From the NCBI GenBank assembly GCA_000151295.1, contig GG745339.1, positions 425,644 to 489,643 on the forward strand: a stretch of DNA of 64,000 bases. Reading direction: 5' to 3'. The notes under the pieces were generated by a model. It had not been told where the DNA came from, searched no databases, and was given only the letters and a program-made list of their open reading frames with translations. Both the position numbers and the translations under genes were made by a program. This stretch comes from Allomyces macrogynus ATCC 38327. Taxonomy: Eukaryota; Blastocladiomycota; Blastocladiomycetes; Blastocladiales; Blastocladiaceae. Shown here in pieces: positions 1,096-22,271 of the stretch (positions are counted from its first letter, which is position 1; each line of letters opens with the position of its first letter).

Positions 1096-1741
1096 GATGG
1101 CGGTGACGATCGCGGGCGAGGGCGACGGTGCGAATGCGGGGAGTTGCGCGCGCGTGCGGGCAGTGGACGGGGCGGGACGTGCTGAGGGCGACGGCCGAGG
1201 AGAGCACGAGTCGTGGAGAGAGAGCCGCGGCGGCGGTCATGGGCGAGCGTGAGGGGAAGCGCGACAGAGGAGGCCGAGCACCAGCGACCGGACACGAAGA
1301 ACAAAGGGCCAGCTCAAGGCACCTCAGCACCACCACCACAACAACCACCACCTTGGCCGACCTTGACCATCAACTGCGAACCACACCACCACAACCATCA
1401 CCACCGTCAACAACGCCCTCTCGCGCGTCCACGGCGACCTACCCCAATGCCCTTCTCCCCGGCGCAACGCGCGGCGCCCGCCCTGGTCGACAACGTGGCG
1501 CGCTTGGCACCGTGCGCGCGGACGAGGCGCGCGCAGCTCATCGTTACCCGTTTGCCTATCGACGGCGAGGGCCAACACCACTCATTACGATCTTCTTCGT
1601 CCTTCTTTCGCGTGAGGGGCCCCGTGGCGGCACGCGCGCGCATGCCAACCGCCCGCCCTGGTCGACGTGTCGGTCGAGAACCCGGCACGCCAACGGCTGA
1701 CAAAGACTGCAGTAGCCCTACTTTTGGACACGCCTCGACGC
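1096..1741. other. Intergenic region, no supported gene
   Basis: This stretch holds the presumed 5' flank of the bZIP gene and the 3' flank of the coiled-coil ORF. It includes a CAC/CAA-rich low-complexity segment around 1320-1405. Open frames here run on both strands but have composition-driven, non-protein-like translations. Confidence 0.5.
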
Positions 1742-3543
1742 TCACTCGTCCGGCGCGAACGAACCCGCCGCGACCCCGGCTCCCTGCCGCGGCGCATCGC
1801 CATCGCGACGTGCGAGTCCCGCCGCGCGCGCCTCAGCGAGTTCCGCGACCATATCGTCAACCTGGTCCACCGCCGCTGCCACCGCGTCGACTTGCGGCAC
1901 GACCGTCGTTGTCGGCTGCTGCTGTTGCGCCTTGCGCGACTTTTTGTTGTCCTTTTCGTACGCGGCGCGCCGCTCCTCGAACCGCGCCTTGGCCTCGCTG
2001 GAACAGGTACTGACCCGCGGCAACAATTCCACTTGCCGCGCTGTCCAGATGTCGACATATGGTCCAAGTCCAACCCGGATTGCGTCCAGCGCCTCGACCG
2101 CAGTTTCCGGTTCGTCTCCACCTTGCCAATGGCCTTGACCGCCTTCGGTACGATACCCGACGCGCTGGTCTGCTCTCGAAACGGGCACAACTCATCACCC
2201 ACCCCGTCGACCTTGCTCTGCTCTTGCACGAATTTGCGCGTCGCACGGTACCCGGCTTCTTGGATCCCAAGCGGTGGGTGTTGCAGTCGCTCCTTCTCCA
2301 TCTCGCGCCGAATCGTACGCTCGCATGGGACGGCTAAACCCATACCCAACATCATGGCAGCGAACCCGCCGACCTTGGTCGAATAGACGACTATGCAATC
2401 TTTTTCGACCTGATGGTACGAAAAGTTGCGGGTCGGGAAGGCGGCACGAGTACATGTGCTGGCAATGACGTTGTAGGTCCACTCGTTGGGCCGGATCGCG
2501 TTTTCTGCAATCGCCTTGGTGAGGTGCAGGACCGGGTCGCGAGGGCCGAATGCGCGTCCCGTCCGATCCTTGATTATTTTCAGGTACGGCTCGAGTTCAG
2601 CGCCGAGATACTGATTACTCTTTTCCTTTTCGTCGTGTAGGGCGCCGCGCAGCTCGCGCACTTCCTGGTTTGCCGAGTTGAGCTGAAATTGCTGCCGTGC
2701 GAGCGCGTCGTCCTTGGTGCGTTTAGTTTCGGCAAGTTGCGCCTGGACTTCTGCGACCCGCCGCGCCGCGTCGTCGTGTGCGTGCCCGAGTTGCGCTTGG
2801 TGATGATCACGCTCACGATCCAGTTGGCGTCGTGTAGTGTCGAGTTCGGCACCGAGTTCAGCAATGCGCTGTTGTGCGGCCCGCGCGTCTCGCGCCGCCG
2901 TGGCGAGTTGTGCGCGAAAATGTTCGATGGTCCGTTCTTGTGTACTGATCATTTCGCGGTCCTTTTCTTTCGACTTATGGCACTTGTTCAACTCGTCACA
3001 CCAGGACCGACTCGCGCCATGCGCGTGATCCCGCTCGCGTGCAGCCTCGGCCGCCGCGTGTCGGTGGTGGTGTGCACTGGCCGACGCGTCGCGCAGTTGC
3101 TGCTCGAGCTGGGCGACGTGCGCTTGCGCTGCAAATGGGTGGCCAGTGCGACCAGGCACATGACCATTCCCACGAGAACGCACGAGAAGGTCGAGGAGCG
3201 CCGAGAGCAGGTGGAGAGGATCTTGTGCGCCATGAACAGGCCCGCCGAGCAGAACCCGTGCGAGCCGGTCGTGTAGGATGATTTTGGCAATGGTGGGAAT
3301 GGTGACGACACAGTGCGACTTGGAGGTGGTATGGCCATGGACTGGGTCAACGTTGGTCGTGGTAATATCGAGGAACCCGCCCAGTTGCTCGAGTTGGTGG
3401 GGCTTGGGGATCTTGACATTAAAATTTGCCAGGAACTCTTGTGGGTCGAAATAGTTGGAGAACACGTTGGGTGGGTCGTCTGGCGACAAATACGGCACAA
3501 GCCCGTGGACCTGGGCCCATTGTTTGATCTTTGGCCAGAACAC
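1742..3543 (-). pseudogene. Coiled-coil protein, frame-broken; possible mobile-element ORF
   Basis: I do not recognise this protein. The main frame begins near 3543 with a plausible globular segment (FWPKIKQWAQVHGLVPYLSP). A coiled coil rich in E/Q/R/H follows between about 3130 and 2600. A Cys/His-poor domain (around 2570-2190) contains SYHQVEKDCIVVYS and VPCERTIRREMEKER. Near 2130 the good reading moves to another frame (EPETAVEALDAIRVGLGPYVD) and ends at 1742, so there is either an indel or a missed intron. The true start may lie in an upstream exon. The gene points away from the Fanzor gene and shares its 5' region. The VPCERTIRRE region faintly recalls N-terminal parts of P-element/THAP9-type transposases, but no DDE catalytic core is visible. 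Function is unknown. Confidence 0.45.
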
Positions 3544-4208
3544 GCGCGGATCAGCGCTTTATCAATCGAAAAAGGTGAAAATTTGGAGTGCGGCGACTGG
3601 CTGTACCATGTACGGGTGCGCCATGGCGCAAGAACGGTGACGACGTCGTGCTGACCGCACCCCTCTTCTCCCGTTGCCTGGTTCACCCATCTGGACGCGC
3701 CTCTCGATTTTGACAGCGGCTTTCCGTGGCTTTCTGTGGCTTGAACAACATAGGGTTGTCAACGCGCTTGAACGGGATGCGGCCGAGCGAGGGCCTTTAC
3801 GAGGGGGTCCGTAATGGTACGCCACCAAGCCACGCCGTTATCAAGGTTGTCCGGCCCCTGGGTCGCCTCTCCTCTTCTCGTAATCGCGACCCCTCCCCAC
3901 CAACCTTCACCTCTTCCTTTCAAATATCTCAAGTCCAACATTAGCCGTCCCTCTCTCGCGTGTCCAGTCGCTGTATAACCCGTCTCTCGCGGCTCTCCCT
4001 TCACCATCACCCAAGTATCAGTACTCGCTTTTACTTTCGCGTCCACGCTGGCTGTCCTCTGTGTGCTCTTGTGCTCGTTTCTTGCCTACTTTCACGACCT
4101 TGCCCGTACGTCTTTTTTGCTCACGTTCCATGCGCCTCCTTGTGTCTTTCTGCGCGTTCTCTCATTCATCGTGTCGTTTTCCTTTATTCAGACCTGGTGT
4201 GTGTCGCC
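3544..4208. other. Divergent intergenic region between coiled-coil ORF and Fanzor gene
   Basis: About 660 bp between the two divergent genes. The part from about 3880 to 4200 is pyrimidine-rich on the plus strand, typical of a fungal promoter or 5' UTR before the Fanzor start. I could not find terminal inverted repeats by eye here. Confidence 0.4.
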
Positions 4209-7200
4209 ATGGCCGATACTACACTACCTGTCGATGCTGTGCCCAGTGATGCCGCACCTGTCGCAGAGCCTATTCTACCCGCGCCAGTCGAGGATGTCGC
4301 ACCAGGTCTCGCCCCAAGTGTCCCGGCTCTCTCGGCCGTTGCGCCGAGTGACCAAGCACGCGCGCCCATTGTTTCAGTCGTTCCTCAAACTCTTCACCAC
4401 GCGCTCGTTGACGCTCCTGAGTACTTGGCCGTGCGCGCTGTCATCGAGGCCCGCTCTGAGCGGCTTGTCAATGCACATGGTTTTGCCGCGACTGAGGCGA
4501 CTCTTTACCTGCGGTACCGTGCGCGTCGTGCCTATGAAGATTTCCGCGACGCGTTGCTCTACGCCGAAGAGGACTACGAGTCGTCCAACGACATGGTCTC
4601 GGTCAGTGTGCTTTTGCTTTCTCGTGCTATACATTTTTCCATGTGATGTGCCAACAGACCTGCTTCTCCGCTGTACATAGCTGTTGAAGGCTGTCACGGT
4701 CGCTGATCAGCAGGCCGATTATCTCGTCTTTGGCATCCCCAACTGCGACCAGCTTGACCAGTATGCGACCGAGTACCTGCACCACGTGCATTACCCCAAC
4801 ACGCCGTTTGTCAATCGCTCGTTCTTTACCAGGTCTTTCGAGTACCTGTTCCAGGAGATTGTCAAGAATGGCTCAGAACACTTTCATCGCACGTTTCGCT
4901 ACGCTGCCGGGCGTTGCATCAACCCATTTGCAGTCCTCGTCGAATCTTGGCCGCCGCCAGCGCCACCTCGTGACCAACGTGCTGTGGAGCCCCCAGCCAA
5001 CCGCAGGATGCGCCGTGATTTTTACGCGGCCATCGACAAGTGGGTCACGACCATTTGCCGCCGTGGCTCAAAGCTGCAGCTCGACAAGTTTCTGTACAAG
5101 TGCGCATGCATCATTGTCGACTACAACTTGTTCATCTTGCAGAACCCCGAGTATGCCCGTGCGACTAGCGGTCTTGTTCCCGATCTTGGCGTGCTGCATG
5201 TTCCGGTGCCTTTTGTGCCGCCGCCGCCTGCTGCCGCTGACGACGAAGCACAAGGGCAAGTCGAGCAACAAGATAGTGTTCACCTTCCGCGGTTTATCCC
5301 TGAGGGCGTACGGATTGCGGCTGAGACTCTGCCGCGCAATCGGCATGCTCGTCGCAAGCAGGGCAAGGCGTGGATCGCACCTGCTGGTATTGATTCGCAC
5401 GCGTTCCAGCGGCTCGCGAAAGAAGTGCACGCCCGTGAGCAAGGTTCCAGTCAGCAAGACGAGGCGACACCACCGCCGCCTGCGTCTGGCACGTCTGGCG
5501 TCGATGGGCTGCACGACCAAGACGTGGCCATGGGCGAGAGTGCTTCGCATGAGCAGCAACACGGCCACGATGGCCAGGCCGATGATGCTGCCGCGCGCAG
5601 GGACGCGACGCGCGAAGAGGACGTGCCCATGCACGAGGGCGATTCTCGTGCAGATGCCGAGCCCCGGGTTTCCATTGCTGTGCCAGCAGCCCGACCTGAT
5701 GAGCCCACATCGGCCGGATCGCATGACGAGGATGTGCCCATGTGTGAAGGTGACTCGCGTACCGGTGCTCGCGGCGATGAGGACGAGGACACGTTCATGG
5801 ACGATGCCGACGCCCTTGTGGGTGCTGAACGTTCGGTTCCCGCAGCTGCACCAGCAGTCGAACCAGACGAGCCCACGCCGACCGGGTCGCTCGGAGATGG
5901 TGGTCCGCGTGACGAGGACGTGCGCATGGACAATGCCGCGTCGCGTGCAAGTGCTGGCGACGACTCGCATGAGGACTTGCCGTCTCAAGGCCGCGGTGAG
6001 CAGGATGCGCCATCTGGTGGTGATACCACGCCTGCTGCCCCCTTGCCTGGTGCTCTCGGGTCCCGTACCGCGTCTGGCAAGTCGCCCCCTGTTGATCCCC
6101 GTTTGGTCTATCGTGATTACGACAAGATCAAGGACGATCCGCGTATGACGGCTTCTGGTCGTGCTGCACGGCGTTGGCGGTCCCGCCACAAGATCCATCC
6201 CGAGACCAATCACCCGCCTCCCTGGCCGCCAGCACTGCCGACGTATCCTCCTTCGGGACCGATGCGGCCTGGCCAAGCACATGTCGCGCGCACGCTGAAC
6301 GCCCATCGTGGTGGTATTCACGCTTCCACGACCGGTCCCATTTCCTCGGACGAACGCAAGCGACGCGCTGGTTTGCCGTCTGCCGCTGCTCGTAAGCGCC
6401 GTGCTGCCGAGGCTGATCGCGCTCCCAAGGCTGCTGAGCGCAAGGCTGCTGAGCGCAAGGCCGCCGAGTCTTTGCCGTCTTCCTCGTCGTCGCCGTCGTC
6501 CTCGTCGGCTCGCGCCGCAGATCCTGGTGGGGATGGTGATGGCGGGGATGGTGGTGACAACCCGGAGCGTCCTCCCCGCGTTCGTCATCCTGACGTGCGT
6601 GACCGGCTCATTGCTGACCAGGTCAAGGAGTTGGTTCTCAGTCTGACCGACATGTTTCGCCACTGTCATCGCAAGCCGACGCGACCGCAGAACATTCTGT
6701 TTGCGATTGTCGATTTTGTCCATGCTCGAGTCGATCTTGCTCGCCAGCATTACGCGTACCTGCAAGAAAATCGCGCCTGCATTGATCAAGTCGCTGATCA
6801 TTTTGCGGTTGCGCGTCGGTGGTTTTGTCCAGACTTGACCATCTTCCCGCACATGGCACTCAAGCGCCGGCATGTTCGGCTTGATTCGATGGACATTACC
6901 CGTGGTCTTCTTGCTGAGTTCCCGGGCAACTCGCCAGACTTACTCCACGTGGTGTTTGGGTTGATCATGAAACACGCGCATCTCGATTCTCTCGTCCCTG
7001 GTGCCAGTGACCTGAACGTGCCAGACGAGCAGTATGAGCTTGCCCTTGAACAGTATGCATGGCAGAAATTACGCGATATATCGCCTCAACTTGCACGTTT
7101 GCGCACCAAATTCTGCTCGGATCCGTCGATTAGTCCCGTCTTGAGTGGCTATTGGCAAAAGCCACGCGTTGATGGTGCACCGCGTGTCGGTTCGTCGTTC

Positions 7201-9016
7201 ACCACCAACGGCTATGCGGCGCACATCTTGATTTCGCGTGTGGTACGTGAATGATCACTCGTCTTGTTTTCCCGACTCTTTGTCCCGGATCATCAACTGA
7301 TCTGTATTTTCAATTTACCATTTTTCTTGCTAGCCTACGGACGACGACGTGCGTCGCGTCGGCGGGGAGGGCGAGATCAAGCAAAAGTCGACGCGTCGTG
7401 TTGTTACCCGGGGTCCTGGTCGCGCTGTCGCCGCCAAGTCGCTGCACTCGCGGCTCGGCACGGGCGAGTTTGCTGCGATCAAGAGTCGCTCGCTCATCGT
7501 GTCCGACTACCCAAAAGGGCTGATTGCCGTCGATCCGGGCCAGTCCACGCTCATGACCAAGACGACGCTTACGCCGTTCCGCGTCGGTGCCTTTGCCAAT
7601 GGCTGGATCAACATCAAGTGGGAAATCACTCGGCGTCGGAACCCGGGCTACAAGTCGTGGTCGATTCCGGGTCCTCGGTGGAGCGCTGCAACGGGTCAAC
7701 GCAACCAGACTTTGCAGATTTTGCGCCTACGGCAGCACCAGTCGGACTTGGAGCAGATCGAGTCGCGTTTGCCGGCCGTTCACGATCCGACCCTAGCCGG
7801 TATCATTGTGCTCGCCAAGGCCGTGACCACCAACATGGAGCGCATTCTCGGGTTCAAGATGGACCGCCGCTATGCCAAGTACGATTTGCAGGCGACCATT
7901 GCCAAGCAGCGCGCCTTGGCCTACTTGCGCAACAAGTTTACTGGTTATGGCGTTCTCTTTGGGAACAAGGGTGCTGTCCAAATCAACCGCGTCACGCGCA
8001 TGCCCGTCAAGGGCGTGATTCGCTATCTTTTAGTCTATGGTATCGACGTCCTGCTTGTTGATGAGCATCGTACGTCAAAATTCTGTGCAGTCTGTGGTTC
8101 TGAGTTTGAGGCGACGCCCGCGATGAAGGTCAACCGCAAGTTTGCCTACCGTTACCTGCACTGCCCTAGCTGCAAGTACGTTGTGAACCGCGACGTGAAC
8201 GCGTCGTGGAACATGTTCCGCGTCGCGTTGCGCGACGTGTTTGACATTTACGTTGCCGACTCGATGCTCAAGCACCCGCTCGCGCTCTTGCCGAGTCGTG
8301 GCGCACCTCGCCCTCTGCTCCCGCAACCAGGCGACGACGATTTTGACGATTCGGCCCACGATCGTTACTCTGGCAATCATGGTGGTCCCGGTGGCGGTGG
8401 CGATGGCGGCCACGGCGGTGGTCCGCGTGGTCGCGTTTCTGCTCCCCGCCGTGGTACTTTTCCGGCACGTGGTCGCTCTCGTGGTGGTGGTGCTCGTGGT
8501 GGATCGGCCACTGCTCAAGCCCATGCTGTTGCTGCACCCGTCGCGTCGAGTGGCGATCCACCCGCCGATACCGTGGTCCCCACAAATGGATCCGATGCCG
8601 CGTCTTTCTCGACCTCTCCCGCCTCGCCCTTCCCTGGTCTCCCCAGCCTTCCTGATCTGCGCCAAGGTTCCCGCTTGCTCGATTCGCTCGGTTCGGCTCC
8701 TGACCGATTGACTCTTGGCGCGCGCGAAAAGTTGGTGTTGATGCGCAAGGGTGCGGCGAGTCGGTTTGGCAAGTTTGTCTCGATCTGGTCGCCGGCCCAG
8801 ACGCTTGTTCATCAGGGTGTTGTCCAGGGCAACCAGGCCTATGATTCGTTGCCCACGCTCCCACCGCCCATTGCCCTTCCACTGTACCTGCCTCGCAAGT
8901 TTGGTTCTTTGGTTCGGGGTTTTACTTCGGATCTGTCGTCGTATTTTGATGAGGCTGGCGCCGTGCCGCGGGTGATTCCTACGCCCGAGAGCGAGGAGAG
9001 CGAGGGTCAGATGTAA
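4209..9016 (+). CDS. Fanzor: eukaryotic TnpB-like RNA-guided nuclease with giant N-terminal extension
   Basis: Three exons join in phase 0: 4209-4601, 4681-7242 and 7334-9016 (introns 4602-4680 and 7243-7333), giving about 1545 aa. The RuvC-like core lies in exon 3. RuvC-I is GLIAVDPGQST, with Asp about residue 1052 (codon at 7532). The Fanzor-type motif VDEHRTSKFC carries the relocated catalytic Glu at about residue 1229 (codon at 8063). A CxxC...CxxC zinc ribbon follows (about 1236/1239/1262/1265), and RuvC-III is NRDVNAS, with Asp about 1272. The segment SFTTNGY just before the second intron matches the strand preceding RuvC-I in this family. The N-terminal extension has acidic repeats (DEDVPM-type), a basic KRR-rich patch and a helical domain. 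The C-terminal tail is Gly/Arg-rich. Known Fanzors cleave DNA guided by an RNA made from their own locus and reside in transposons. The intron-rich, long form next to other element genes suggests the Fanzor1 group (inference). Confidence 0.88.
5515..5990 (+). repeat. Imperfect acidic repeats in the Fanzor extension
   Basis: The encoded protein repeats a module built around Asp-Glu-Asp-Val-x-Met (DVAMGES, EDVPMHEGDSR, EDVPMCEGDSR, DTFMDDA, EDVRMDNAASR). The modules are separated by Pro/Ala-rich linkers containing PDEPT. These look like degenerate intragenic duplications in a disordered segment. Confidence 0.7.
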
Positions 9017-9329
9017 GATTTGTCGCATCCTGTTTGTTCGTTTGTGTCCATGTCTGTGAATAACATTTCTCATTTGTCACTTTCTTGCTCGGTTGTCCTG
9101 GTTTGTGCAACTTTCTGGCACAGCATGGCGAGCGTCAATGCGATGGCTCCATTCTGACTCCATTCCCTCCAACACGGTCTCGACTGCCAGTACGACCGCG
9201 CGAATTGCCCCATCTTGTTCCACCTCTTCTCATTCTCTCGCAACACCACCGTCTACTGCGCTCTTGTCTGGTCGCATCGCGCTCAACCTGTCCCCGTGTC
9301 AGTGTCTGTGCTCTTCCATCAACCGTTGA

Positions 9330-11514
9330 CCGACTTGTTTGGCACCGATCCGCGCGTCAACATGCTACCGCTGCCGCAATACGAGCACATTGACGCCACG
9401 GCGCTCATCTACCCAACTGTGAATCCGGCGTACAAGAACATGTATCAAGTCGTGTCTGCTCGACTCGTGGTCCGTTTGCAGTTGCGATATCAACTTGTTG
9501 CGTTTCACAGGCGCCAAATTCAAGTCTTTTTGCATTCTTTTCTGTCAGCTCGCGCCGGACCTTATCGTCTTTTGCGGGCCCAAGATTCCCATGGGCTTCC
9601 GGTCGACACGATTTACTGTGCGTGTCGCGTTGGTTGATCCTTTTAAGATCAATTGTGTCTCAACTTGGCTGCTCTGTTTTTATAACACTTAGGATCCTGG
9701 CGGCCCCTACTCGACGCCGTGCCTCACGAAACGCGACTGTGTCGATATGATCCAGGTCCGTCTCGCCTCTGCACCCCTCTTTTATCATTTCCGCGTCCGA
9801 TGGTCGCTTGCACCGGGGTCTCTTGATTTGGCGATTCGTCGATTCTCCGCGTCCTTTTCACGAATCCTGACTGGGTGGACAATGATTCTTCTTCCTTTTT
9901 CTTTTGAAATCTAGAAGGGCGAATTGGTTGTGCAAAGCCGGCTCTACGGTGGGCGTAATTTGCCGCCCACGCAATATGCGTACGTACCCATGTTTTGCTT
10001 TGCCTTGATCTCCTCGCGGAACACGACGGATTGTTTGTCGAGCAACGTTTTCTACTCTTGTCCTGACTCGATGCGTTGGCATCTGTAGTCATTTTCGCTG
10101 TTGCCCTCGGGAACTCCTCAAAATGACGACCAACTTTGCCGAGTACGATCAGCTCAAGGCCGCCGCTCTCGCCAACCAGTCCATGACGCAGCAGCAGCTC
10201 GATCAACTTGATGCGCACCTGCGCGGACTCGATCTTACCCCTCAATGCATCCAAGCCGATCAACTTCCCACCTTCCGCCCTGGTTGGCTCGACGCTGCCA
10301 TGCAGAATCCCGAGTATGTTGCTTTGCTGGCCCGGGCCGAGTCTGCGGCCACGTCCTCGTCGTCGGCTCCCGTTGCTGCTAGCGTGCATCCTCCCCATTC
10401 CTCTCTTCCTACGGCGACCTTTCAACCACTGCATGTTCCGGCTGCCGCTCCCGCTTCTTTGTCGCCGGGCGATGAGCCCATGGACGTTGATCAACCACTG
10501 CCGCCGCCGCTCGACGTGCCTGTATCGCAGAACGTGGTCCTGACCTTGACTCCCGCGTTGGACCGACCCGACACACCGCGTCTGCCCGCTGCATCTGAGA
10601 CGGCTCCCGCTCCTCCTCGCGTTTCCAAGGCAAAGCGCTTACCCTCGGACGTCAATCTTGGTCCGAAATCCACCAAGCGCGTCAAGACCGGCAAGGCTGG
10701 CAATGCTGCCAAGAACGATGCGTCGGGTGCGACAGCCTCGAATTCGGTCGAGTCTGCCTCGTCGCTTGCTGATCCCGTCGAGGCCGCATACCAAAGCATT
10801 TTCCAGGATCCGGAGAAAGAACCTGTCGTATCGGTGCATCACTTGGAGACACTGACGCGTAAGGATCTGCGCTGTCTGCGGGACAAGGGCTGGCTCGGCG
10901 ATCAAGTCATCAATGGCTATGGTCGCATGCTCGCTGACCATTGTCGCAAATCTGGCGGTGCATTGCCCAACATCCACTTCTTCGATTCCTTTTTTTACCA
11001 GCACATCTGCGCCTACGGGCACAAGCAAGTCGCGCGATGGACCAAGCGATTTGACCTGTTTGCGCTCGACCTGCTGCTGTTCCCCGTGCACCTCAGCCAA
11101 CACTGGTGTCTCGGGTGCGTCAATTTCCGCCGCAAGCGCATCGAGTACTACGATTCGCTGCACGGGCCAGTGGGGCCATACTTTGCCAAGGTGCGCAAGT
11201 ACCTCGACGCTGAGCACCGCACCAAGAAGGGGGGCGCTCCGTTTGATTTTGATGGGTGGACCGATTACTATCCGACCGCGCCGGGCCACGAGCAGATCCC
11301 ACGCCAGACAAACGGCTATGATTGCGGCGTCTTTACGTGCGCCTTCATGCACCACGTCGTGAACCAAGGGGCCGAGTGGCAATTCAAGCAGGAGGACATG
11401 GCCGCCTGGCGGCGCCGGATCGTGCATGAGTTTGTCGAGTATGGTCGCGAGTGCAAGTTGGCGCAGTCGCAGTCTCGGCGGCAGCAGCGGCAGCAAGGGT
11501 CACAGTCTGCGTGA
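9330..11514 (+). CDS. Multi-exon gene ending in a Ulp1/SENP (C48) cysteine protease domain; 5' end uncertain
   Basis: The last exon (10090-11514) encodes a Pro/Ala/Ser-rich region (with GDEPMDVDQP) followed by a Ulp1-like catalytic domain. His is in LSQHWCLGC, Asp in YYDSLHG, Gln in PRQTNGYDCG and the nucleophile Cys in YDCGVFTC. Family members cleave SUMO or related modifiers and are often carried by eukaryotic transposons. Upstream exons 9511-9617, 9693-9755 and 9915-9979 splice in consistent frame into the protease exon (FRSTRFT / DPGGPYSTPC / KGELVVQSRLYGG). A further likely exon lies at about 9330-9466. If those exons belong to a separate gene, the protease would start at ATG 10123. It lies just downstream of Fanzor in the same orientation, which suggests the same element. 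Confidence 0.75.
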
Positions 11515-11972
11515 CAGATCGTTGTACAAGAGTGATATGTGGTCTTGTCGGTCGAGTTTGGTTGTTGGTGTGTTGATATCTTCTCTTTTTCCTCCTGCCA
11601 TTGTCGAGTGTTTACCCGCATTCCTCCTTGTGGTGATGATAAACCATCAATTTCCTTTGCCGGTCTCTCAAATTTGTCACATTTCTGTTTGCATCGTGGT
11701 GCAGCTGTGCTTCGGGCGTCACCATTGGTTTGCCCTTGTACGTTCCAGTCTGTTTGTCACTTTTTCTGTTGACACCTCCACTGCGGATCCTCGCACTGCA
11801 CGACCAAGCAGTATAAGCCGCTCAACTCCACCTCGATCAATTACAATCTTTGCCGTCCTAGAGACCCATCCATCGCTCGTCTCGACTCATCAAACTGACC
11901 CGACTCTTGCTCGGTCTGGCCAAACCAATCCATTTGCGCCTGCACTCCCCTTGTCCGTCTCGCACCGTTCAT
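11515..11972. other. Intergenic, possible right flank of the Fanzor/Ulp1 block
   Basis: Pyrimidine-rich on the plus strand and lacking a convincing gene. This is the natural place to look for the right terminus of the mobile element. No inverted repeat with the 3.6-4.2 kb region was obvious by eye. Confidence 0.4.
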
Positions 11973-12750
11973 CTACTTCATATCCTCCAGGTTCACGGGT
12001 ATGCCGGTCTGCCTCTCCAGGCTCTCTGGCGTGACCCCGAGTTCGTCGCGGTAGAGCAACTGCAAGATGCGCAGGTTCTGCACGTTGCGCCTGTTCGCCT
12101 CACGGCACGTCTTGATATGCTGCAGCGTCGTCTCCAACTCCTCCCTGTTCCCGAGGTCGCCGTACTTGGTGAGCTTCTCGGTGAGACTGGCGTCCACGGC
12201 TTTAATTCGCTCGTTGAGCACCTCGTCCAGGTCCTATGTGTGTGCGCACACGGGATTAGATGCGTGCTCCATGGACGAGATTTACGATCAAGTCGATTAC
12301 GAACGTACCCATCCCTCGTTCAACGCCTGTTCCATGCCGAGTTTGCGCGCGAGCGCCTCGTACTGCGCCTTGAGCTGCCCGACCTCGGCCTTGAGCTTGG
12401 CGAGTTCCGCGCGTTTCTATCGACCCAATATCGTAAGATGCGAATCGGTTCATTCCACTGACCATCTTCAACCAAAACTGCGACGCACATACCGTTTGCA
12501 GGGTCTGGTCTGGTAAGCAACTGTACCACCACACCCGACCGACCTTGGTCCTCTTGATCTTGTCCTGGTCCACGAGCTCCGTGAGCGCCGCCGTGAACAC
12601 TCGCTGGGCTATACGCGTGTCCCGTTCTGGTCAGATTGTTGCACAATATTCGCGGTCACTCAACATGTCCATTCCCCACGTACTGTCCGGCCGTCCGTCC
12701 CTTTTCGCGCGCCCCTCGATGTTTTCTTTCGTGAGAATCTTTTGCTCGCG
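11973..12750 (-). CDS. Winged-helix/coiled-coil protein, candidate Mnd1 (5' end unresolved)
   Basis: Four exons can be read. The first runs from about 12750 to 12684 (EQKILTKENIEG). The second starts at 12608 (QRVFTAALTELVDQDKIKR...VGRVWWYSCLPDQTL). The third encodes KRAELAKLKAEVGQLKAQYE, and the last runs from 12232 to 11973. Joins with gtacgt/gtatgt donors keep frame. The layout is a winged helix, then a coiled coil, then a C-terminal REANRR...TGIPVNLED, matching the shape of Mnd1 (winged helix ending G-x3-aromatic...P-x2-L; C-terminal EAANRW...GIP). Mnd1 partners Hop2 to stimulate Dmc1/Rad51 strand exchange in meiosis. Identification is by remote similarity only. The N-terminus upstream of 12684 is unclear and may hold another frame break (a promising frame, FKIESGEWIDVSKIAL, lies just upstream). 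Confidence 0.45.
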
Positions 12751-12850
12751 CAAAGTAGCCGACGCCCGATGGGAACCCAAGCGCGTTCAGCGCAATCTTG
12801 GACACGTCAATCCACTCGCCCGACTCGATCTTGAACCGGTGCATTTGCGA

Positions 12851-13718
12851 GACGCCAAAGAATCGAAATTGTGAGGAAGATGAATGTACAAGTCGATTTT
12901 GAACCTATAGTCGGTCTGTGAATCGATTTGTGACCGAAATAGTCGGTAGAGAATTTCAATAAGGAGGCAGAAATGTCTCGAACACAAGGTAAATGTATGA
13001 ACACGATTGAAAGGACATCAAGATGGACCTAGGGCCTGGGAAGTGAACTGGAAATCAAAGGAACCTAAACCCCTGAACGAGAACCAGTGTAATTAAATGC
13101 TTTATCCGAGGGGTCGCGGGCATAGATAAGGAGAGGGTGGCAAAGAAAAGAGAAGGCGGGCAGCAATGGCAGCATCACAGGCACGGGGAGCTGGATGAAT
13201 CTGCACGACGGATGACAATGCTTTCAATGTCCACCCGTACGGTGGATAATTGAAGGCGATTGTTATGACACAAGGTGGTCATGGCATGCCGACGGTTATA
13301 GGTACGAAGGGTCGAGGGAGGAGCGTGATGATTGTCTTCCAGGAGATGGGACGGTCATTCGAGGACTGATATGGAAGATCCAGTAGCGGCGGCCGCGTGG
13401 GGACCATGACATGGTTCTGCGGGTTGGTTGGTAAAAGAGTGGGAGCAGGGCACGCAGAGCTAGCCATACCTAAATGCTAGGGCTGGGGAAAAACATGCAT
13501 GCTGCAGAGGCATGGAAGGAACGTGAGAGGGACGACGCAGTGCGAAGTGCCACACATGTGGATGCTGGCGCCACGTCGCGCATCGGCTTCTTTGCATCCA
13601 GACTCGCAGCCTGGCGTACAAAGATCGTCGTCGCGTGAGATGCGCGACTAGTCGACGACATCGTGAACAGCATCGCATCGTTGCTCTATTCAACAGTTAG
13701 CACTCGCAAGACGGCGCC
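12851..13718. other. Intergenic, no supported gene
   Basis: A lower-GC stretch with no convincing coding frame. It contains attaaatgct-tta-tccgagggg at about 13092-13113, which is nearly repeated at about 18276-18297. Confidence 0.4.
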
Positions 13719-14276
13719 ATGGGCCAGCGCTCACGCTTGGAATTGCTCCCGCTCGAATTGCTTGAGAACATACTCAAGTTCGTCTTGTTCAACGACGCTC
13801 CAAGGGCCGAGGGGACCGCAACGCCGCCCCAGGATTGCAATTCGATTGGGTTCACCTCGGGTCAATTCTTCCCGGTCGCTGGCGCTTGCACGTCCGACGG
13901 CGTGCCGAAACGGTTCGCGGCCGCCACTGTCGGCGGCACACGCGACGCCCGTGGCGCCGGCGCTGTCTTCTTTGCTTTTGTTTTGTGTTCCCTGGGCGAC
14001 AGCGAGCGCGTTGCGGAGCGAGTGCAACGACCATTCGCATCAGACTGCAAGTCGCCGAAAGACGCCGCAAATCACGCCCTGCCCCGCGACATTGGAATGG
14101 ATGTACCATATCCAATGGGGGCGCAAAGTGCAGTTCCCACACAAACCGCTGGGGAACACAGCATTGACAATGATCGTGACAATTACCCACGTAAAAAGCA
14201 ATTCGGGACAAGGTATCAAGCGGAAGGCGAAGAATATGGGACAAGTCCCTTGTTGGATCCTGGTCCGGCGACGTAG
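13719..14276 (+). pseudogene. F-box-like start, probably a gene fragment
   Basis: The frame opens with MGQRSRLELLPLELLENI, a good F-box helix start, but the following sequence does not resemble an LRR or any recognised domain. An opposing F-box-like start lies on the minus strand in the same interval. Probably truncated copies of the local F-box family. Confidence 0.3.
13852..14244 (-). pseudogene. F-box-like fragment on the opposite strand
   Basis: A minus-strand frame starts MSHILRLPLDTLSRIAFYVG and later has DLRRLSATCSLMRMV, the two halves of an F-box pattern separated by an insert. It then degenerates into Arg-rich sequence. The overlap with the plus-strand F-box start means at most one is functional. 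Confidence 0.35.
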
Positions 14277-14690
14277 ACTGGGCGGTTCAGACAAGGCACG
14301 AGTTGATCAAATGTGATAGGCCAGGTTGGCCGAGAAAGTGCGGCAAGCCAGCGGAAAGGGAATGCGACAAGTCAGGGAGCTTGGTTTGTCAAGGAGAAGC
14401 TTATCAAAGGTGGTGATGGCTGACACAAAGAGAGAGCGTGTGCCGCTGGTGAGCAAAGCGTCGACAAAAGAACTTGGATCATTCATGTTGACTCGATGTA
14501 AGCGACCGGAAAGGCAAAACAGAGATTGATCATAAATGGCACGAAAATCCCAACCAACCAGGTTCAAGAACAAAGAAACTGACACCTTCACTCAAGAGGC
14601 GGCGAAGATGGAATAGGAGGAAGTCAACGGACAGAAAATACGACAATCACAACCGACGCTAAACGAAAAGACCGTCACGACACACGAGCT

Positions 14691-15736
14691 TCAGGGCCAA
14701 CGGATCGAAAAGCGCGGCATGCCGGACGGGGGAGACGTGTACGGGATGCGGGAAAGGTCGACGCCGGCCATGGTGTCAGTGACGATGCCACGATTGCGCA
14801 TAAACTCGACCGGATCCGTCGATTGGGCTAGCAGATGCAAGAGCGGGGGATACACGAGCGGCCACACGGTGTTGAAGACGTTCTGGGACCGCGACCACTG
14901 GTAGCGAGACGTGGCCAGCAAGTCGCGAAGCTTGGAGTGGAAATTGTCGGGGAAATTGGGTCGGGCGCGGGCCGTGGCAGCAGCCGAGAGGAGCGCGTCG
15001 TCTTGCTGGACGAGATCAAGACAGTTCAACTTGCGCTCAACTGTTAGAGAAGAACATGGACGTGAGGAAGAGACCAGAAGAGGGGCAACACAGGATCGAC
15101 CGAAAGGTGCTGCGCGCCGAGTCAGCAACGTACACACAGACACCTTGTCAATCAAGGCGTTGTACTGGTGGGCTTGGGCCGACAATTCCTCAATCTGCAG
15201 AACCACTTGGTCGAGATCGAGGGACTGCTCGGAGCCGTCAACTGTTGGCTAAAAGGAAAAGTGGTAGCGATCGATGAAAAGAAGCGACTTGCATCGAGAA
15301 AGTGAGGCCAGGATACACACGGTGAAGGGGTAGTACGCAGTCACCTCACCAGGTTCTTCCAGAGACCAAAGAACGTCCTGCTCAACCAAACGGTCGAGAA
15401 TGTTGCGCACGAGGGTGACTTGGCGCTGGTCATTCACGACTTGGGCGACTTGTTCTATGGCGATGATCAAAGGAACAGAACCCGAGTCACCAGCCGTGCT
15501 TGACTTTGTGAGTCAAGAGACTGGCTACGCACTCGCACTCTGCGGAATGTTGTTCCGGGCAAAATAATCACGGATGAGCGGCTCGACTATGATTTGTCAA
15601 ACATATATTCGCAAAGAGTGAGGCATCGAAAGCTAGGCCGCGACGCAGTCGAAATCAATGCGAGTCGGGGAGTATACAGACGCTCGGCTTCGGTACGGAG
15701 AGGGCGCTTGGGGGTGTTGGAACGCCTGGGAGGCAT
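14691..15736 (-). CDS. HOP2: Hop2-like (PSMC3IP) meiotic recombination accessory protein
   Basis: Five exons (15736-15697, 15586-15533, 15454-15321, 15248-15134, 15040-14691) total 693 nt and splice into one open 230-aa frame, close to the usual Hop2 length of about 220 aa. The N-terminus has a short basic stretch, then a winged helix (EPLIRDYFARNNIPQSA...ILDRLVEQDVLWSL), then a coiled coil (DLDQVVLQIEELSAQAHQY). The C-terminus YQWSRSQNVFNTVW...RGIVTDTMAGVDL aligns in pattern with Hop2's W-x-KRK...GIETDED tail. Hop2 forms a heterodimer with Mnd1 that promotes Dmc1/Rad51-mediated homologue pairing in the nucleus. A candidate Mnd1 gene is about 2 kb away on the same strand. The call rests on domain order and motif spacing. 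Confidence 0.6.
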
Positions 15737-16143
15737 CGTAGATAGCTGGAAATGATGATCGCTGGTGATTGCGGCAAGTTGGACGCGCGTAGTGCCCAAG
15801 GAAGCGTTGTGAATCAATGTCAATGATGGAGGTCAGGCGTGATGGAAGCAGTGTCAATCGAGCCACTTTGACTTGCACAAAAGGACAAGTGGAGAAACGC
15901 GGCAAAGGATATCACAACATCGTCGAGCAACACGCGGGCAAGAACAAAAGTCACAAAAGACATTCTCAAGCTGGGGCGATGATGATGAATCTACGACTGT
16001 CCCATGACATGCATCGATAGCGACAGCGGCGGGAAACAAAGCGTCATTGTTGTTCGTCAATGCTGGTCACAATCTTCAACTGGAGCAATCATTGTGATGG
16101 TAATGGAGAGTGTGAGGCATGTAGGAACCAAAGATGAAGCGCT

Positions 16144-17856
16144 TCATGTTCTCAAGTTGACGTGAGATTGACGTGAAAAGCAAAAGATTCTGATTCTGAC
16201 AAGACAAACACTCAAAGACAGAACAACAACACACTGCTCTGGCCATGGAGCAGCAGCAACAACAACACTGCAACGTCGCCCCGCCAGAAAGGTCCACACG
16301 ACAAAGACACGAGCATTGTACCAAACCCGATGCGTCATGGCAACAATGGTCTCGGGTTGGATAAGGCCACGAGGGAACAATGCGACAAACCGCAGGCATC
16401 GCCAAGCACAGGCAAGCAAACTTTCAGCCACGACTTGCAGACTTGGATCGTCATTGTCGAGTGCAAGTGCCAGAGACTCAAACATGGCCAAGGGCAGAGA
16501 TTCAATCGAGAGGACCAACCCCTGAGCCGTGAACACAAACCCAGATAAATGGAGAGAGCGGAGAGCAGGGATGCGGTCCACAATGACATTGGGCCAGAAA
16601 TCATAGACGATTGTCACTGCTGGCAAAAATTGCAGCTCCAGGAACCACAGGTTGATGTGAATCATGGCAACAATGAAGTCGAGGCAGTGAATATGCGTGA
16701 TCCCAGACAAGACCAAACTCCTCAGGCCAGATCGCTCCACAACAGCAAGTCGCTGACAAACCACGGGTGTCAAAGAGTCCGCCAATGCAAGCGAGACAAG
16801 AGTATCAGGAGCACGCGACACAATATCCAAGTCCGTTGGCTCATCAATGAGTGGAACAATTGTGAGTCCATGCAGACGAGGTGGCATGGCAAGATCACAC
16901 GTGACAGACAGTGATGCCCAATCTTGGAAATCAAGGTGCAGCCATGTCAAGCTGGTCGGGATATGGACCATCATTGAGAGGAGCGTGAAACTGGCCACAT
17001 CAACGTCGTCGATTGGGTCCTCCATGACACCAAATTCAAAACGGACCAGGATCGGGCAGCCCTCCAAGACATCCGCAATCAGGTCATATTCCAGACCAGT
17101 GGTCGCAGGACCAAGGCAGTCAATGGCAAGTATGGCGAGCCGTGGCATGATAAACAGCGCAAGGAACAGAACCACATATGACAGGGAGGAACCATGAACG
17201 GGCAGGCATTCCAAGGACGGAAACGGCAAGGGATCCGAGCTGTGCTCATCAATCCGGACCGAGTGGAGTGCGAGCTTGACGAGTAGCGAGAGACACATGC
17301 GCATGTGCTGAATGAAGAGAGCAGGCAAGTGCTGATAGTACAGCTTCACGACGCGAATCGTCAAGGGAAGCGGGTCAGACAGCAAGCACGGATGGTCGTC
17401 CCAGAACGTATTTGCAAACAGCATGATGTCAAGCTGAGAAATGTATGGCGGAAGATGCGCAACTGTATATGACGGGCTCAATATGAATGCGCAAGTGCCC
17501 CGCAGAGCATGGCTGCGCACCCAGATACAGTGCAAAATGAGATGAGAATACTGGACAGGCGCAGCCAAAATGAGAGCCCAACGCAAAGGATCATCGTGTG
17601 GTGAGACAGCAACGTAACCGACGACATTATCATTGTCATGCAGGTCCATAAGGTAACGTCCTTGCTCGTCCTGGAGGATGTTCAACAGTGGCAGGTGCGA
17701 CCTGATCGCCACGGGCAAGGCAGGGGCACACCAAGCAGGAGACACAAGCGCGAGCCCGACAAGCATCTGTGGAGGGGAATAGTCCGCCGACAGGAACTGC
17801 GCAATGTATTCCTTGAGCTCGGCAGGAAGGGATTCAAATGGGCGCGGATTGGACAA
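16144..17856 (-). CDS. F-box/LRR-like protein
   Basis: An uninterrupted 570-aa frame starts MSNPRPFESLPAELKEYIAQ, a typical F-box, with VGLALVSPAWCAPAL as the second F-box half. The rest is Leu-rich with irregular LRR-like strands (LTWLHLDFQDW, LRSLVLSGITHI, LRSLHLSGFVF). F-box proteins act as substrate receptors of SCF ubiquitin ligases through Skp1, and the LRR part would bind the substrate. The last 60 or so residues are hydrophobic/basic without LRR pattern, so the true end could be earlier or spliced. It belongs to the expanded F-box/LRR family also seen as decayed copies elsewhere in the window. Confidence 0.65.
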   Translation of the reverse strand: MSNPRPFESLPAELKEYIAQFLSADYSPPQMLVGLALVSPAWCAPALPVAIRSHLPLLNILQDEQGRYLMDLHDNDNVVGYVAVSPHDDPLRWALILAAPVQYSHLILHCIWVRSHALRGTCAFILSPSYTVAHLPPYISQLDIMLFANTFWDDHPCLLSDPLPLTIRVVKLYYQHLPALFIQHMRMCLSLLVKLALHSVRIDEHSSDPLPFPSLECLPVHGSSLSYVVLFLALFIMPRLAILAIDCLGPATTGLEYDLIADVLEGCPILVRFEFGVMEDPIDDVDVASFTLLSMMVHIPTSLTWLHLDFQDWASLSVTCDLAMPPRLHGLTIVPLIDEPTDLDIVSRAPDTLVSLALADSLTPVVCQRLAVVERSGLRSLVLSGITHIHCLDFIVAMIHINLWFLELQFLPAVTIVYDFWPNVIVDRIPALRSLHLSGFVFTAQGLVLSIESLPLAMFESLALALDNDDPSLQVVAESLLACAWRCLRFVALFPRGLIQPETIVAMTHRVWYNARVFVVWTFLAGRRCSVVVAAAPWPEQCVVVLSLSVCLVRIRIFCFSRQSHVNLRT

Positions 17857-18618
17857 GAGCAGGTCGAGGATGGGATCATCGATTGCCGCAGAAGTCGCTC
17901 AGGCGAGGATTGATGTCGAAATATCAGTGTTGACGGTGAATACGAACGTGGCGAGTCCTTTGCAGCGAGTGGCGGCGACAAGAACTGGAGATGAAATTGG
18001 ATGGACTCGTGACAAGGCGAGCAATATTGGCGACAGGCGTGACATCAAGACCTGCGATTCAAGTCCATGAATGACAAACGAACACATGTATAAGAGGCTG
18101 GACGGCAAGTTTGCTGTTGTAACCAAAGTTGAGTAAAACTGCAAGGAGGACGTGTATGGCAGAGAATGAATTTTGACCTCATTGATATCATAAAGATTGG
18201 ATGGGGCAACAGAGGGGAACATCGCACAGGGCGAGGGAACGAGATATACAAACTCCCAAACCTGAAACCAAAGCTATTAAATGCTAAGTCCGAGGGGGAC
18301 CAAGACATTTCCAAACGGGAACGATAAGGTACAGCTTTTAATAGCTTCGTGGCAACGGGGGGAACGGTGCTGGTAGGCATACAGTGACGGTAGATTGATA
18401 TTCCTTGCGCTGTGTGAAAGGAACAGATGGTAGAGACAACCAGGCTCATGGGGATGCTGGCAATGGAAGGGCGTGCATGCAAGGTGGCGAAACACGAAAC
18501 AAGCTTGAAGATGATGATCAATGTTTATGTGATAATGAATGAACATCAACGGAAGAAACTGCGTTTGCCATAGTTTTCGGGAACTGGTAACGAAGATAGA
18601 AATCTCCACGGAAGCGAA
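17857..18618. other. Intergenic between F-box gene and second Ulp1-like gene
   Basis: No convincing coding frame. It contains the attaaatgct-aag-tccgagggg sequence (about 18276-18297) shared with about 13092-13113. Confidence 0.4.
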
Positions 18619-20487
18619 TCACTCAAAGTCAAGGTCGGGGAGGAAAACCTCGGGATCGTCACGGAGCTGTTGTTGATACACCTCGGCAAACTGTTGAGCA
18701 ACGGCGAGATCGTGCGCGTGGACCCGATTGAGGATGATCTCGCGCTGCTGGATACTGATACGGTCTTTGCAGTACGCCGTGCACTGATCCATGAGGTTCA
18801 TGATGAGCTTGAGGAATTCGAGACGCAAAACTGACATGTTCTCGTGGCGAAAGAGTGTCTGGTCAATCGAGCGGAACATGCGTCCGACGGGCAGGCGACA
18901 AATCTCTCGGAGAAAGTCAAGATCGCGTTCGAGGATCGTGCGAACACACTGCACAGCGTGCATCCCACAGTTGTAGCCATCACGTTGCAGAGGCATCTCG
19001 GCCATGACGACAATGGGCCAGGAGGCCTGGGAGAAGTTTGAACCAGTGGCAAAGAATGGCTGGTCCCGCCAAGCGTCGTGCAACATGTACCGGTCGTTCA
19101 GGGCATGAGCGCTAGGATCGTCAATCGCACGCTGCCGCAAGTACCGATTGAGCCCGACAAGCGCAGGGTAGCGCGTGGCCGTTGGCGTGTAGGTGCGATA
19201 ATTGGTGCCAGAGTCAAAAACAATGAAAATGGGCGGGTCGGCCACGTCGGGACGCGCAGGAAGGGCTGTGATAAAAGGAAAGTGGAAACAGGTCAACGAT
19301 AACGCCAACATCGACCAGGGCTGCAAGTGTGCAAACGAGAGTGCAGAATACGGACCAGTGGGCCGGTGGACAAGCTTGTCGAGATTCACGCCCACGACAA
19401 CAGCCCAGTGGTTGGCGTTCACGAGCATTGGTGCAACAAGCAGGGAATCAAACGGGTCTCGGCCACCGCTGTGAAAGTTAACAGTGCGCGACACAATGGC
19501 GATATCATTGCGACCGAGAAAAAACATCCACTGAGGACGGAAGAGAAAGACGCGACGTTTGACGTGCTCAGAAGCGCACCCGTAAAAGTACCGTGTGAGC
19601 AATGAGACAAGCCGGTCTAGGAGCCACCCAAATTCACGGAGTTGGTCAACGTCGTCAGGGGTGACATATTCGCATTGGATCCACTCGTTAAACTTGTTGT
19701 AGGGGAACCAAAACATGGGCGTGTTTCTACCAAGATCCCATTCAAACAACTTGCGTTCGTATTGACGCCATGGGTCGTGATGTTGAGAAGCTTCGACGAC
19801 ACTCACGTCAAGAACTGACCCGTCTCCACTGATACCACCATCACTGAAAGTCAACTGATTGGACTGGGATGGCAAACCATGAGAGTATGGCTCAGCCGCA
19901 GCAGCAAGAAGAGGAACAGTGGAACTGGTCACAAGGGGCGAAGCACGAGCTGTGTGAACTGTTGGCATCATGGTCGACAGAGTTGAAGAGACTGTGCCAG
20001 ATGCAGCCACAGCAGCAGCAGCAGTCGATTGAGCAGTAGGAGTCGAGCCAGACGTGGCAGCGGCAGGCGACTGAGCAAAAGGAACCATGCCAGTACCAGT
20101 CGAGTCACCTTGGCCCTGCGACAATGGCACCTGCATCTGCGGCACACGCGTCACACGCACAGGACCATTCGACAAGACACGCGGAGGTCCATCGGGGACG
20201 GCAACTATCTCCTTCCACCGCTCACGGCCGTGGTTGGGCGGTGGCCGGTCGCGCCGGAAATCAAAACGGCGCCACGGCGGTAAATCGTGAGGGAACCGAT
20301 CTGAAATCATTTCAAATTCCAAGATTTCCGGGTCGTCCGATGGCAAGATGCGGAAGATGGACTGGTAGCGATCCCTCGTCGGGTACAGGAACGAGCGTGC
20401 AGGGGGATGGCGCACAATCCCATCAGCCTCGTCTTGTTGTCGTCGCGCCGCGTCACGCTTGTGGTTGAATTGCTTGGACCGTCCCAT
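18619..20487 (-). CDS. Ulp1/C48-like cysteine protease with disordered N-terminal region
   Basis: I chose ATG 20487 (MGRSKQFNHKRDAARRQQDE) over an upstream in-frame ATG because the preceding residues look non-coding; this gives about 622 aa. After a Ser/Thr/Ala-rich linker the protease-like region contains ANHWAVVVGVNLD (catalytic His), FIVFDSGTNYR (Asp), EMPLQRDGYNCGMHAV (Gln and nucleophile Cys), and a helical C-terminus (LEFLKLIMNLMDQ). The family removes SUMO or Nedd8-like modifiers. Element-borne copies are common in eukaryotes. It differs in sequence from the Ulp1-like gene at 9.3-11.5 kb, so it is a separate family member. No introns are needed. Confidence 0.72.
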   Translation of the reverse strand: MGRSKQFNHKRDAARRQQDEADGIVRHPPARSFLYPTRDRYQSIFRILPSDDPEILEFEMISDRFPHDLPPWRRFDFRRDRPPPNHGRERWKEIVAVPDGPPRVLSNGPVRVTRVPQMQVPLSQGQGDSTGTGMVPFAQSPAAATSGSTPTAQSTAAAAVAASGTVSSTLSTMMPTVHTARASPLVTSSTVPLLAAAAEPYSHGLPSQSNQLTFSDGGISGDGSVLDVSVVEASQHHDPWRQYERKLFEWDLGRNTPMFWFPYNKFNEWIQCEYVTPDDVDQLREFGWLLDRLVSLLTRYFYGCASEHVKRRVFLFRPQWMFFLGRNDIAIVSRTVNFHSGGRDPFDSLLVAPMLVNANHWAVVVGVNLDKLVHRPTGPYSALSFAHLQPWSMLALSLTCFHFPFITALPARPDVADPPIFIVFDSGTNYRTYTPTATRYPALVGLNRYLRQRAIDDPSAHALNDRYMLHDAWRDQPFFATGSNFSQASWPIVVMAEMPLQRDGYNCGMHAVQCVRTILERDLDFLREICRLPVGRMFRSIDQTLFRHENMSVLRLEFLKLIMNLMDQCTAYCKDRISIQQREIILNRVHAHDLAVAQQFAEVYQQQLRDDPEVFLPDLDFE

Positions 20488-21539: not shown

Positions 21540-21556
21540 CCCCCCCCCCCCCCCCC
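21540..21556 (+). repeat. Poly-C homopolymer (17 C)
   Basis: An uninterrupted run of 17 cytosines, followed by ctcctcc. Such tracts are prone to sequencing error, so frames crossing it should not be trusted. Confidence 0.9.
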
Positions 21557-21621
21557 TCCTCCACTTTCTACTCGCATCGACAGGTCGACCAAGGCCAAGA
21601 ACAACACTGGTCGAGGGCTCC

Positions 21622-22139: not shown

Positions 22140-22271
22140 CTCAGTGTTTGTCGTGACCCCCATCCCCATCCCCATCCCCATCCCCATCCCCATCGTTTCA
22201 GGATGGCCCTCATTTTTTCGTGTGTTGAGGCGCGGGTGTACACCCGTCCAGACCGCATATTTGGGCTGTCC
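22140..22271. repeat. Dispersed repeat, left copy: (CCCCAT)n plus 71-bp MITE-like unit
   Basis: A 132-bp sequence consisting of a short leader, a ccccat hexamer array and a 71-bp unit (22201-22271). The unit starts ggatggccct and ends tttgggctgtcc, which form imperfect inverted termini, and has an inner palindrome around gggtgtacaccc. A nearly identical copy lies at 24371-24496 with one hexamer fewer. This copy abuts the sequence gap. Confidence 0.85.

What the first reader, a model, noticed from the sequence alone, without database searches (positions are those of the whole stretch)
4209..9016. A 1545-aa Fanzor nuclease with an intact RuvC-type active site
All catalytic landmarks are in frame: RuvC-I Asp (AVDPGQST), the relocated Glu in VDEHRTSKFC, a four-Cys zinc ribbon and RuvC-III NRDVNAS. 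Two clean introns splice without frame loss. The protein is much longer than typical published Fanzors because of a roughly 980-residue N-terminal extension. It may be an active RNA-guided nuclease of a new subtype.
Basis: partly seen in the sequence, partly recalled or inferred. Interest (0 to 1): 0.88.

Follow-up and report, generated by a model that had tools for sequence, protein, structure and literature searches.

The report
Long intact Fanzor1 gene in Allomyces
An Allomyces-like fungus carries one complete gene for a Fanzor1-type nuclease (a eukaryotic cousin of CRISPR enzymes) that is about twice the usual length and shows no transposon ends, so it is a real but mostly expected family member, with an open possibility that the host keeps it for its own use.

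Summary
Bases 4209-9016 encode 1545 residues in three exons; start and both junctions agree with an Allomyces arbusculus protein. The Fanzor fingerprint is complete: DPG (D1052), relocated Glu E1229, four-Cys ribbon, NRD (D1272); Pfam TNB 1.5e-12. Sequence supports a Fanzor1-type protein; no tree was possible and both AlphaFold models failed.

The "980-residue extension" is overstated: a strand shared with another Fanzor1-like frame lies at 971-981. The excess is mainly a linker of about 475 residues and a tail of about 235.

Setting: none of six distant relatives examined (of seven found), nor a truncated copy on C73, has the full motif in one frame. The gene lies in a 19.6-kb segment missing from the aligned part of homeologous C62. 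No terminal repeats or guide-RNA structure were found. The C73 copy is decayed at CpG sites, this gene is not. A. arbusculus has the same downstream neighbour.

Best reading: an intact, probably catalytically competent, single-copy Fanzor1; domestication is possible but unproven.

The parts
4209..4601 (+). Exon 1, residues 1-131
   Evidence: same start and junction in A. arbusculus P0001
4602..4680 (+). Intron 1 (79 nt, GTCAGT...CATAG)
   Evidence: the truncated copy on C73 keeps related sequence at this place, its donor GT mutated
4681..7242 (+). Exon 2, residues 132-985: first island (begins in exon 1), low-complexity linker, second island, WED-like strand
   Evidence: domain labels are my reading
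5188..6618 (+). Low-complexity, disorder-prone linker (residues about 301-777)
   Evidence: composition windows with an ad hoc threshold; lower conservation against A. arbusculus (391-617: 188 of 222 aligned identical)
6355..6402 (+). Basic clusters RKRR...RKRR (residues 690-705), possible nuclear localisation signal
   Evidence: reading as NLS is inference
7198..7230 (+). WED-like strand FTTNGYAAHIL (residues 971-981)
   Evidence: aligned with TDGFAIHIL of a Fanzor1-like ORF on L057; resembles SFMTNGYEAWLL on C47 (by eye); the label WED is recalled
7243..7333 (+). Intron 2 (91 nt, GTACGT...GCTAG)
   Evidence: junction identical in P0001
7334..9016 (+). Exon 3, residues 986-1545 and stop: RuvC, TNB/zinc ribbon, C-terminal tail
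   Evidence: residues after 1346 are not matched by P0001
7532..7534 (+). RuvC-I Asp, D1052 (DPG)
8063..8065 (+). Alternative RuvC-II Glu, E1229
8084..8173 (+). C4 zinc ribbon (C1236, C1239, C1262, C1265)
   Evidence: PF07282
8192..8194 (+). RuvC-III Asp, D1272 (NRD)
1728..21358 (.). Segment of about 19.6 kb with the Fanzor gene that is absent from the aligned part of homeologous contig C62
   Evidence: left limit read by eye near 1727; right limit from the start of a repeat

Best explanation
The gene encodes a Fanzor1-type RNA-guided DNA endonuclease. SHOWN by sequence: a three-exon frame, a complete RuvC D-E-D set in the Fanzor arrangement, a C4 TNB ribbon, and an ortholog with the same core in A. 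arbusculus. INFERRED: the protein enters the nucleus, binds an omega-RNA through its WED/REC region (two islands, about 61-300 and 778-985, separated by a disorder-prone linker), pairs the guide with DNA beside a short transposon-adjacent motif, and cuts both strands with the single RuvC site. It now sits as a single-copy gene without recognisable transposon ends; it most likely came from a transposon-borne Fanzor1, and related copies in the genome have at least partly decayed.
For: PF07282 TNB 1.5e-12; 5 of 6 members of a core alignment match it. DPG, E1229, C4, D1272 in one frame; 0 of 20,000 shuffles match the motif. These are the fingerprints given in PMC10711439 and the motif of PMC3627910. 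A profile of the window core, A. arbusculus and four genome paralogs matches solved TnpB-like L79 (9.2e-7) and weakly P. parasitica Fanzor1 (0.0052). A. arbusculus P0001: 82% over the searched region, catalytic and Cys positions kept, 64 of 64 identical at 986-1049 and 237 of 251 at 1050-1300 against 188 of 222 aligned at 391-617 (Fisher p 2e-5, regions chosen after seeing the alignment). The tail of the P0001 model matches the gene downstream of the window gene, so the locus is the same in both species. None of six distant relatives examined, nor the C73 copy, has the full motif in one frame.
Against: No RNA or protein evidence. No omega-RNA: 195 of 200 shuffles of the 284 nt after the stop fold at least as well, and no Rfam match at E 1 in 3000-12000. 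No terminal inverted repeats. Structure predictions, made on P0001 pieces, failed (pLDDT 31.4 and 37.0), so the RuvC fold was not checked in 3D. The P0001 model lacks counterparts of residues 618-777 and of 73 of the 208 residues 778-985, and diverges after 1346: annotation error or real difference, unresolved. A single-sequence search of the Protein Data Bank had nothing below 0.02 (best 0.024, Cas12f; P. parasitica Fanzor1 0.091), and the best profile match was L79, not a Fanzor1. NCBIfam matches are below their cut-offs.
Confidence: 0.7

Rival explanations
1. It is still cargo of a mobile element (a large or asymmetric one, e.g. Helitron-like, or the whole 19.6-kb segment), and is simply a recent or surviving copy.
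For: Segment 1728-21358 is missing from the aligned part of homeologous C62. A truncated copy of its 5' part exists on C73 (78% DNA identity). Fanzor1s are described as transposon-borne (PMC3627910, PMC10711439).
Against: No terminal repeats near the gene or the segment ends (46, 180, 57 and 19 of 200 shuffles reach the observed score in four tests). No transposase or recombinase Pfam match among the segment's ORFs that were scanned (not every ORF). Apart from the C73 copy no close copy was found: next best 33% by E-value. Downstream neighbour shared with A. arbusculus. Absence on C62 may equally be a deletion.
Confidence: 0.2
2. Domesticated host gene: a Fanzor1 kept by selection for a host role, with a host-acquired linker and tail. 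(Overlaps with the best explanation, which leaves the role open.)
For: Single copy, no transposon ends found, same neighbour in two species, core more conserved than linker, CpG o/e 1.20 against 0.09 in the C73 copy.
Against: No dN/dS (A. arbusculus DNA not available here), no expression data; linkers evolve faster in most proteins (recalled); absent from one homeolog; four of seven other copies measured are not strongly CpG-depleted either.
Confidence: 0.2
3. A catalytically silent DNA- or RNA-binding derivative (like nuclease-dead TnpB relatives, recalled).
For: None direct; the long linker and tail could serve regulation (inference).
Against: All three acidic residues and four Cys intact in two species.
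Confidence: 0.07
4. Extension and nuclease core are separate genes fused by the reader.
For: The C73 copy holds only the N-terminal part.
Against: The C73 copy ends inside the linker, so it is a truncation; exon 2 is one open frame carrying both extension and WED-like strand; P0001 joins them, though that is a gene model.
Confidence: 0.05

Closest known systems
Allomyces arbusculus hypothetical protein GGF31_001143 (P0001)
   Same: Ortholog: same start, junctions and catalytic set; same downstream gene
   Different: 1227 aa model, lacks three larger internal stretches and runs into the downstream gene after the position of residue 1346
Fanzor1 (SpuFz1, GtFz1, PpFz1; PMC10432273, PMC11423790)
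   Same: DPG/alternative-Glu/C4/RD fingerprint described for Fanzors; eukaryotic
   Different: The majority of Fanzor1s are 600-700 aa (PMC11423790); this is 1545 aa with a long linker and tail; no inverted repeats or omega-RNA found here. PpFz1 has an insertion of about 100 aa within RuvC; the inserts here lie outside RuvC
Allomyces macrogynus Fanzor1 families (three listed in Table 1 of PMC3627910)
   Same: Same genus as the nearest relative, same family
   Different: Sequences not seen here; whether this locus corresponds to one of them is unknown
Fanzor2 / IS607 TnpB
   Same: Same RuvC fingerprint (PMC10711439)
   Different: No IS607 TnpA seen among scanned neighbouring ORFs; much longer; introns

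Membership tests
Fanzor1 | RuvC-I DPG motif | tested here: met
   D1052-P-G
Fanzor1 | Catalytic Glu six residues before the zinc ribbon, canonical Glu absent | tested here: met
   E1229-HRTSKF-C1236; no Glu at 1162-1228 (sequence)
Fanzor1 | D-X(125,275)-[TS][TS]XX-C4-X(5,50)-RD (Bao and Jurka) | tested here: met
   0 of 20,000 shuffles
Fanzor1 | TNB/OrfB zinc-ribbon domain | tested here: met
   PF07282 1.5e-12, 47.9 bits over cut-off 26.3
Fanzor1 | Falls in the Fanzor1 clade of a tree | not tested
   No set of Fanzor1 sequences could be assembled
Fanzor1 | RuvC/WED/REC fold | tested here: inconclusive
   AlphaFold on P0001 pieces: mean pLDDT 31.4 and 37.0 with 3 and 2 sequences
Fanzor1 | Encoded inside a eukaryotic transposon | tested here: inconclusive
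   No inverted repeats beyond chance, but the segment is absent on C62 and a truncated copy lies elsewhere
Fanzor1 | omega-RNA at the 3' end | tested here: inconclusive
   9017-9300 not more structured than shuffles; folding alone is a weak test
Fanzor1 | RNA-guided DNA cleavage | not testable with these tools
   needs biochemistry
Fanzor2 / IS607 TnpB | Companion IS607 TnpA serine recombinase | tested here: inconclusive
   none among the ORFs of 1728-21358 that were scanned with Pfam; not all ORFs scanned
IS200/IS605 TnpB | Canonical RuvC-II Glu about 50 residues before the ribbon | tested here: not met
   no Glu at 1162-1228 (sequence)

The most novel reading that the evidence does not exclude
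A domesticated eukaryotic RNA-guided nuclease: a Fanzor1 that lost its transposon, became a fixed single-copy Allomyces gene with a large regulatory linker, and is used by the host (for example against other repeats), while some related copies were mutated at CpG sites.
Probability: 0.2. Interest if true: 0.78.

Novelty: new member of a known kind. Interest (0 to 1): 0.42.

Why it matters
Fanzors are eukaryotic RNA-guided nucleases, and the papers read here describe them in transposons and viruses. A long, intact, single-copy Fanzor1 at the same place in two Allomyces species is a good test case for whether eukaryotes have taken such a nuclease into their own service, and a candidate for biochemistry with unusual added regions. 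Whether a domesticated Fanzor is already in print I did not settle: 8 held papers contain both words (listing seen, none read).

Tried and rejected
Structure prediction of a core piece (A4) and of residues 56-395 (A3) of P0001 gave pLDDT 31.4 and 37.0; no fold search was run and the models are not used as evidence. Protein searches with the 458-aa core and with profile A1 found nothing at E 0.01; in all three protein searches only about 8,000 candidates sharing most words were scored, and P0001 itself lies outside the length limits of those two, so they say little about absence. Viral collection: one protein query and two DNA patterns found nothing. Rfam and 3' folding gave no omega-RNA candidate. 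Terminal repeats: none beyond chance. Islands: no relative in the Protein Data Bank by sequence (residues 56-395 of P0001, best E 0.83; window 6589-7242, best 0.55). A clean empty site on C62 was hoped for, but C62 carries roughly 290 bp of its own between the two homologous parts (about 257 by the BLAST ends), so insertion and deletion cannot be told apart. A tblastn of the core against C73b missed the hit already known, so that run was not used as a negative. A possible intron joining the two frames of the C73b copy was looked for: 16 open joins listed, none convincing to me, so C73b was left as 'not in one frame'.

The idea that this gene is the only intact Fanzor was not adopted: C74:770787 (392-codon open frame with a TNB match) was not examined, introns could hide intact copies, and the genome search gives lower bounds.
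Full report
OBSERVATION. The gene is as described. Reading bases 4209-9016 with introns 4602-4680 and 7243-7333 gives 1545 residues. Many splice choices keep the frame open (32 listed), so the frame alone is weak evidence; the better support is a database protein, A. arbusculus GGF31_001143 (P0001; a gene model), whose alignment has the same start and exactly these two junctions. RuvC-I D1052 (DPG), E1229 (VDEHRTSKFC), C1236/C1239/C1262/C1265 and D1272 (NRD) are present. The published TnpB/Fanzor motif is met and 0 of 20,000 shuffles of residues 986-1310 met it.

SOURCE. The window lies on contig C64 of a 54-Mb, 75-contig genome. The only database relative found is from Allomyces arbusculus, a blastocladiomycete fungus, so the genome is most likely another Allomyces (inference). 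It has duplicated regions: the AROM frame of this window (49428-52412; name recalled) has a 92% identical copy on C62.

FAMILY. Pfam TNB 1.5e-12; NCBIfam guided_TnpB 2.2e-10 but below its curated cut-off. DPG plus a Glu six residues before the ribbon, with no Glu in 1162-1228, is the molecular fingerprint of Fanzors in PMC10711439 (outline, abstract, part 1 of 3 of Results, and passages seen). The D-X-[TS][TS]-C4-RD motif is from PMC3627910 (outline, abstract, one section and passages seen), which lists three Fanzor1 families in A. macrogynus; among held papers it is the only one holding both words Allomyces and Fanzor. A single-sequence search of solved structures gave nothing below 0.02; a six-sequence profile matches TnpB-like L79 at 9.2e-7 and P. 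parasitica Fanzor1 at 0.0052. Calling it Fanzor1 rather than Fanzor2 rests on introns, size and lack of a seen IS607 partner; no tree was possible.

ARCHITECTURE. Composition (ad hoc threshold, boundaries my reading) separates a first island (about 61-300), a low-complexity acidic and then Arg/Lys/Ser-rich linker (about 301-777, with RKRR clusters at 690-705), a second island (778-985) ending in a WED-like strand at 971-981, RuvC/TNB (about 1040-1300) and a tail (about 1310-1545) that is mostly low-complexity except around 1441-1520. The strand aligns with TDGFAIHIL of a Fanzor1-like open frame on L057. The majority of Fanzor1s have 600-700 residues (PMC11423790, one section and passages seen); SpuFz1 has 638 (PMC10432273, passages and one section seen). 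That WED and REC precede RuvC in the chain is recalled. Against A. arbusculus, identity is 303 of 330 at 61-390, 188 of 222 aligned (of 227) at 391-617, 127 of 135 aligned (of 208) at 778-985, 64 of 64 at 986-1049 and 237 of 251 at 1050-1300. The core differs less than the linker (14 of 315 against 34 of 222, p 2e-5; regions chosen with the alignment in view). Residues 618-777 and 73 residues of 778-985 have no counterpart in that gene model, and 1347-1545 align at only 33 of 103, because its end runs into the downstream gene, matching window 9158-9637. That shows the same neighbour in both species, and also that the A. arbusculus model is doubtful at its end.

GENOMIC SETTING. The RuvC exon has six distant relatives in the genome, 32-38% identical; a Pfam scan adds C74:770787, not examined. 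None of the six, nor the C73 copy described next, has the full motif in one open frame; introns could hide some. A stretch of about 1.8 kb on C73 (about 974430-976250) is a copy of window about 4045-5790 (limits by eye), truncated inside the linker, with stops and frameshifts. Its CpG observed/expected is 0.09 between flanks of 1.27 and 1.30, against 1.20 in the window gene; of 336 mismatches in 1588 aligned bases, 214 are C-to-T or G-to-A relative to the window and 148 of these hit window CpGs. The C69 (0.09) and C47 (0.24) copies are also CpG-poor; C73b (1.01), C53 (1.0), C48 (0.80) and C71 (0.74) are not or less so. So three of seven other copies were strongly mutated at CpG, as after methylation, while this gene was spared.

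PRESENCE AND ABSENCE. C62 (436001-476000 compared) aligns up to about window 1727 and again from 23066, with roughly 290 bp of its own between. It lacks 1728-21358, which holds this gene, two Ulp1-like protease genes and others; genome searches with the Fanzor exons gave no C62 match. The right side is bordered by a repeat with 26 matched stretches in the genome, itself included (21357-22271), and a withheld stretch of N. No inverted repeats beyond chance were found around the gene or the segment, and no transposase among the scanned ORFs (not all ORFs). Insertion in one homeolog or deletion in the other cannot be distinguished.

MECHANISM. Most likely a working Fanzor1: guide-RNA binding through WED/REC, pairing beside a short motif, double-strand cutting by one RuvC site. 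Only the sequence anatomy is shown; RNA binding, guide, motif and cutting are inferred from SpuFz1, GtFz1 and PpFz1. No omega-RNA was detected: 195 of 200 shuffles of 9017-9300 fold at least as well, no Rfam match.

VERDICT. A true and intact Fanzor1-type gene: a new member of a known kind, with unusual length. Candidate domestication is the interesting open reading (about 0.2).

Noticed in passing
C73:974430-976250 of the window's genome (L022): A truncated Fanzor copy forms a sharply bounded CpG-depleted island (o/e 0.09, flanks about 1.3), suggesting methylation-driven or RIP-like mutation of repeats in this fungus.
   Followed up: yes
window 1728-21358: A segment of about 19.6 kb present on C64 and absent from the aligned part of homeologous C62, where the order of the neighbouring parts is also inverted.
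   Followed up: partly
window 10009-11514 (+) and 18619-20652 (-): Two Ulp1-type (C48) protease frames near the Fanzor gene (8.7e-33 and 2.4e-4), with partial relatives on C63, C55, C45, C24 and C48, and on C45 and C53.
   Followed up: partly
L057:5403-6566: A contig labelled as a Bacteroidetes metagenome genome carries a Fanzor1-like open frame (DPN, VDEYHTSKLC, NRDRN); probably eukaryotic DNA in the bin (inference).
   Followed up: partly
window 21357-22271: A repeat with 26 matched stretches in the genome (itself included), 99% identical to a copy on C62 at a different site, next to the withheld stretch 22275-23051.
   Followed up: partly
C74:770787-770981: A further TNB-domain match in a 392-codon open frame without stops, perhaps a second intact Fanzor; not examined.
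   Followed up: no
window 571-1236 (-) and 25242-26228 (-): Two reading frames share the bZIP-like stretch RKAQNRAAQRAF on either side of the segment 1728-21358; only the first has a Pfam bZIP match (5.1e-9).
   Followed up: no
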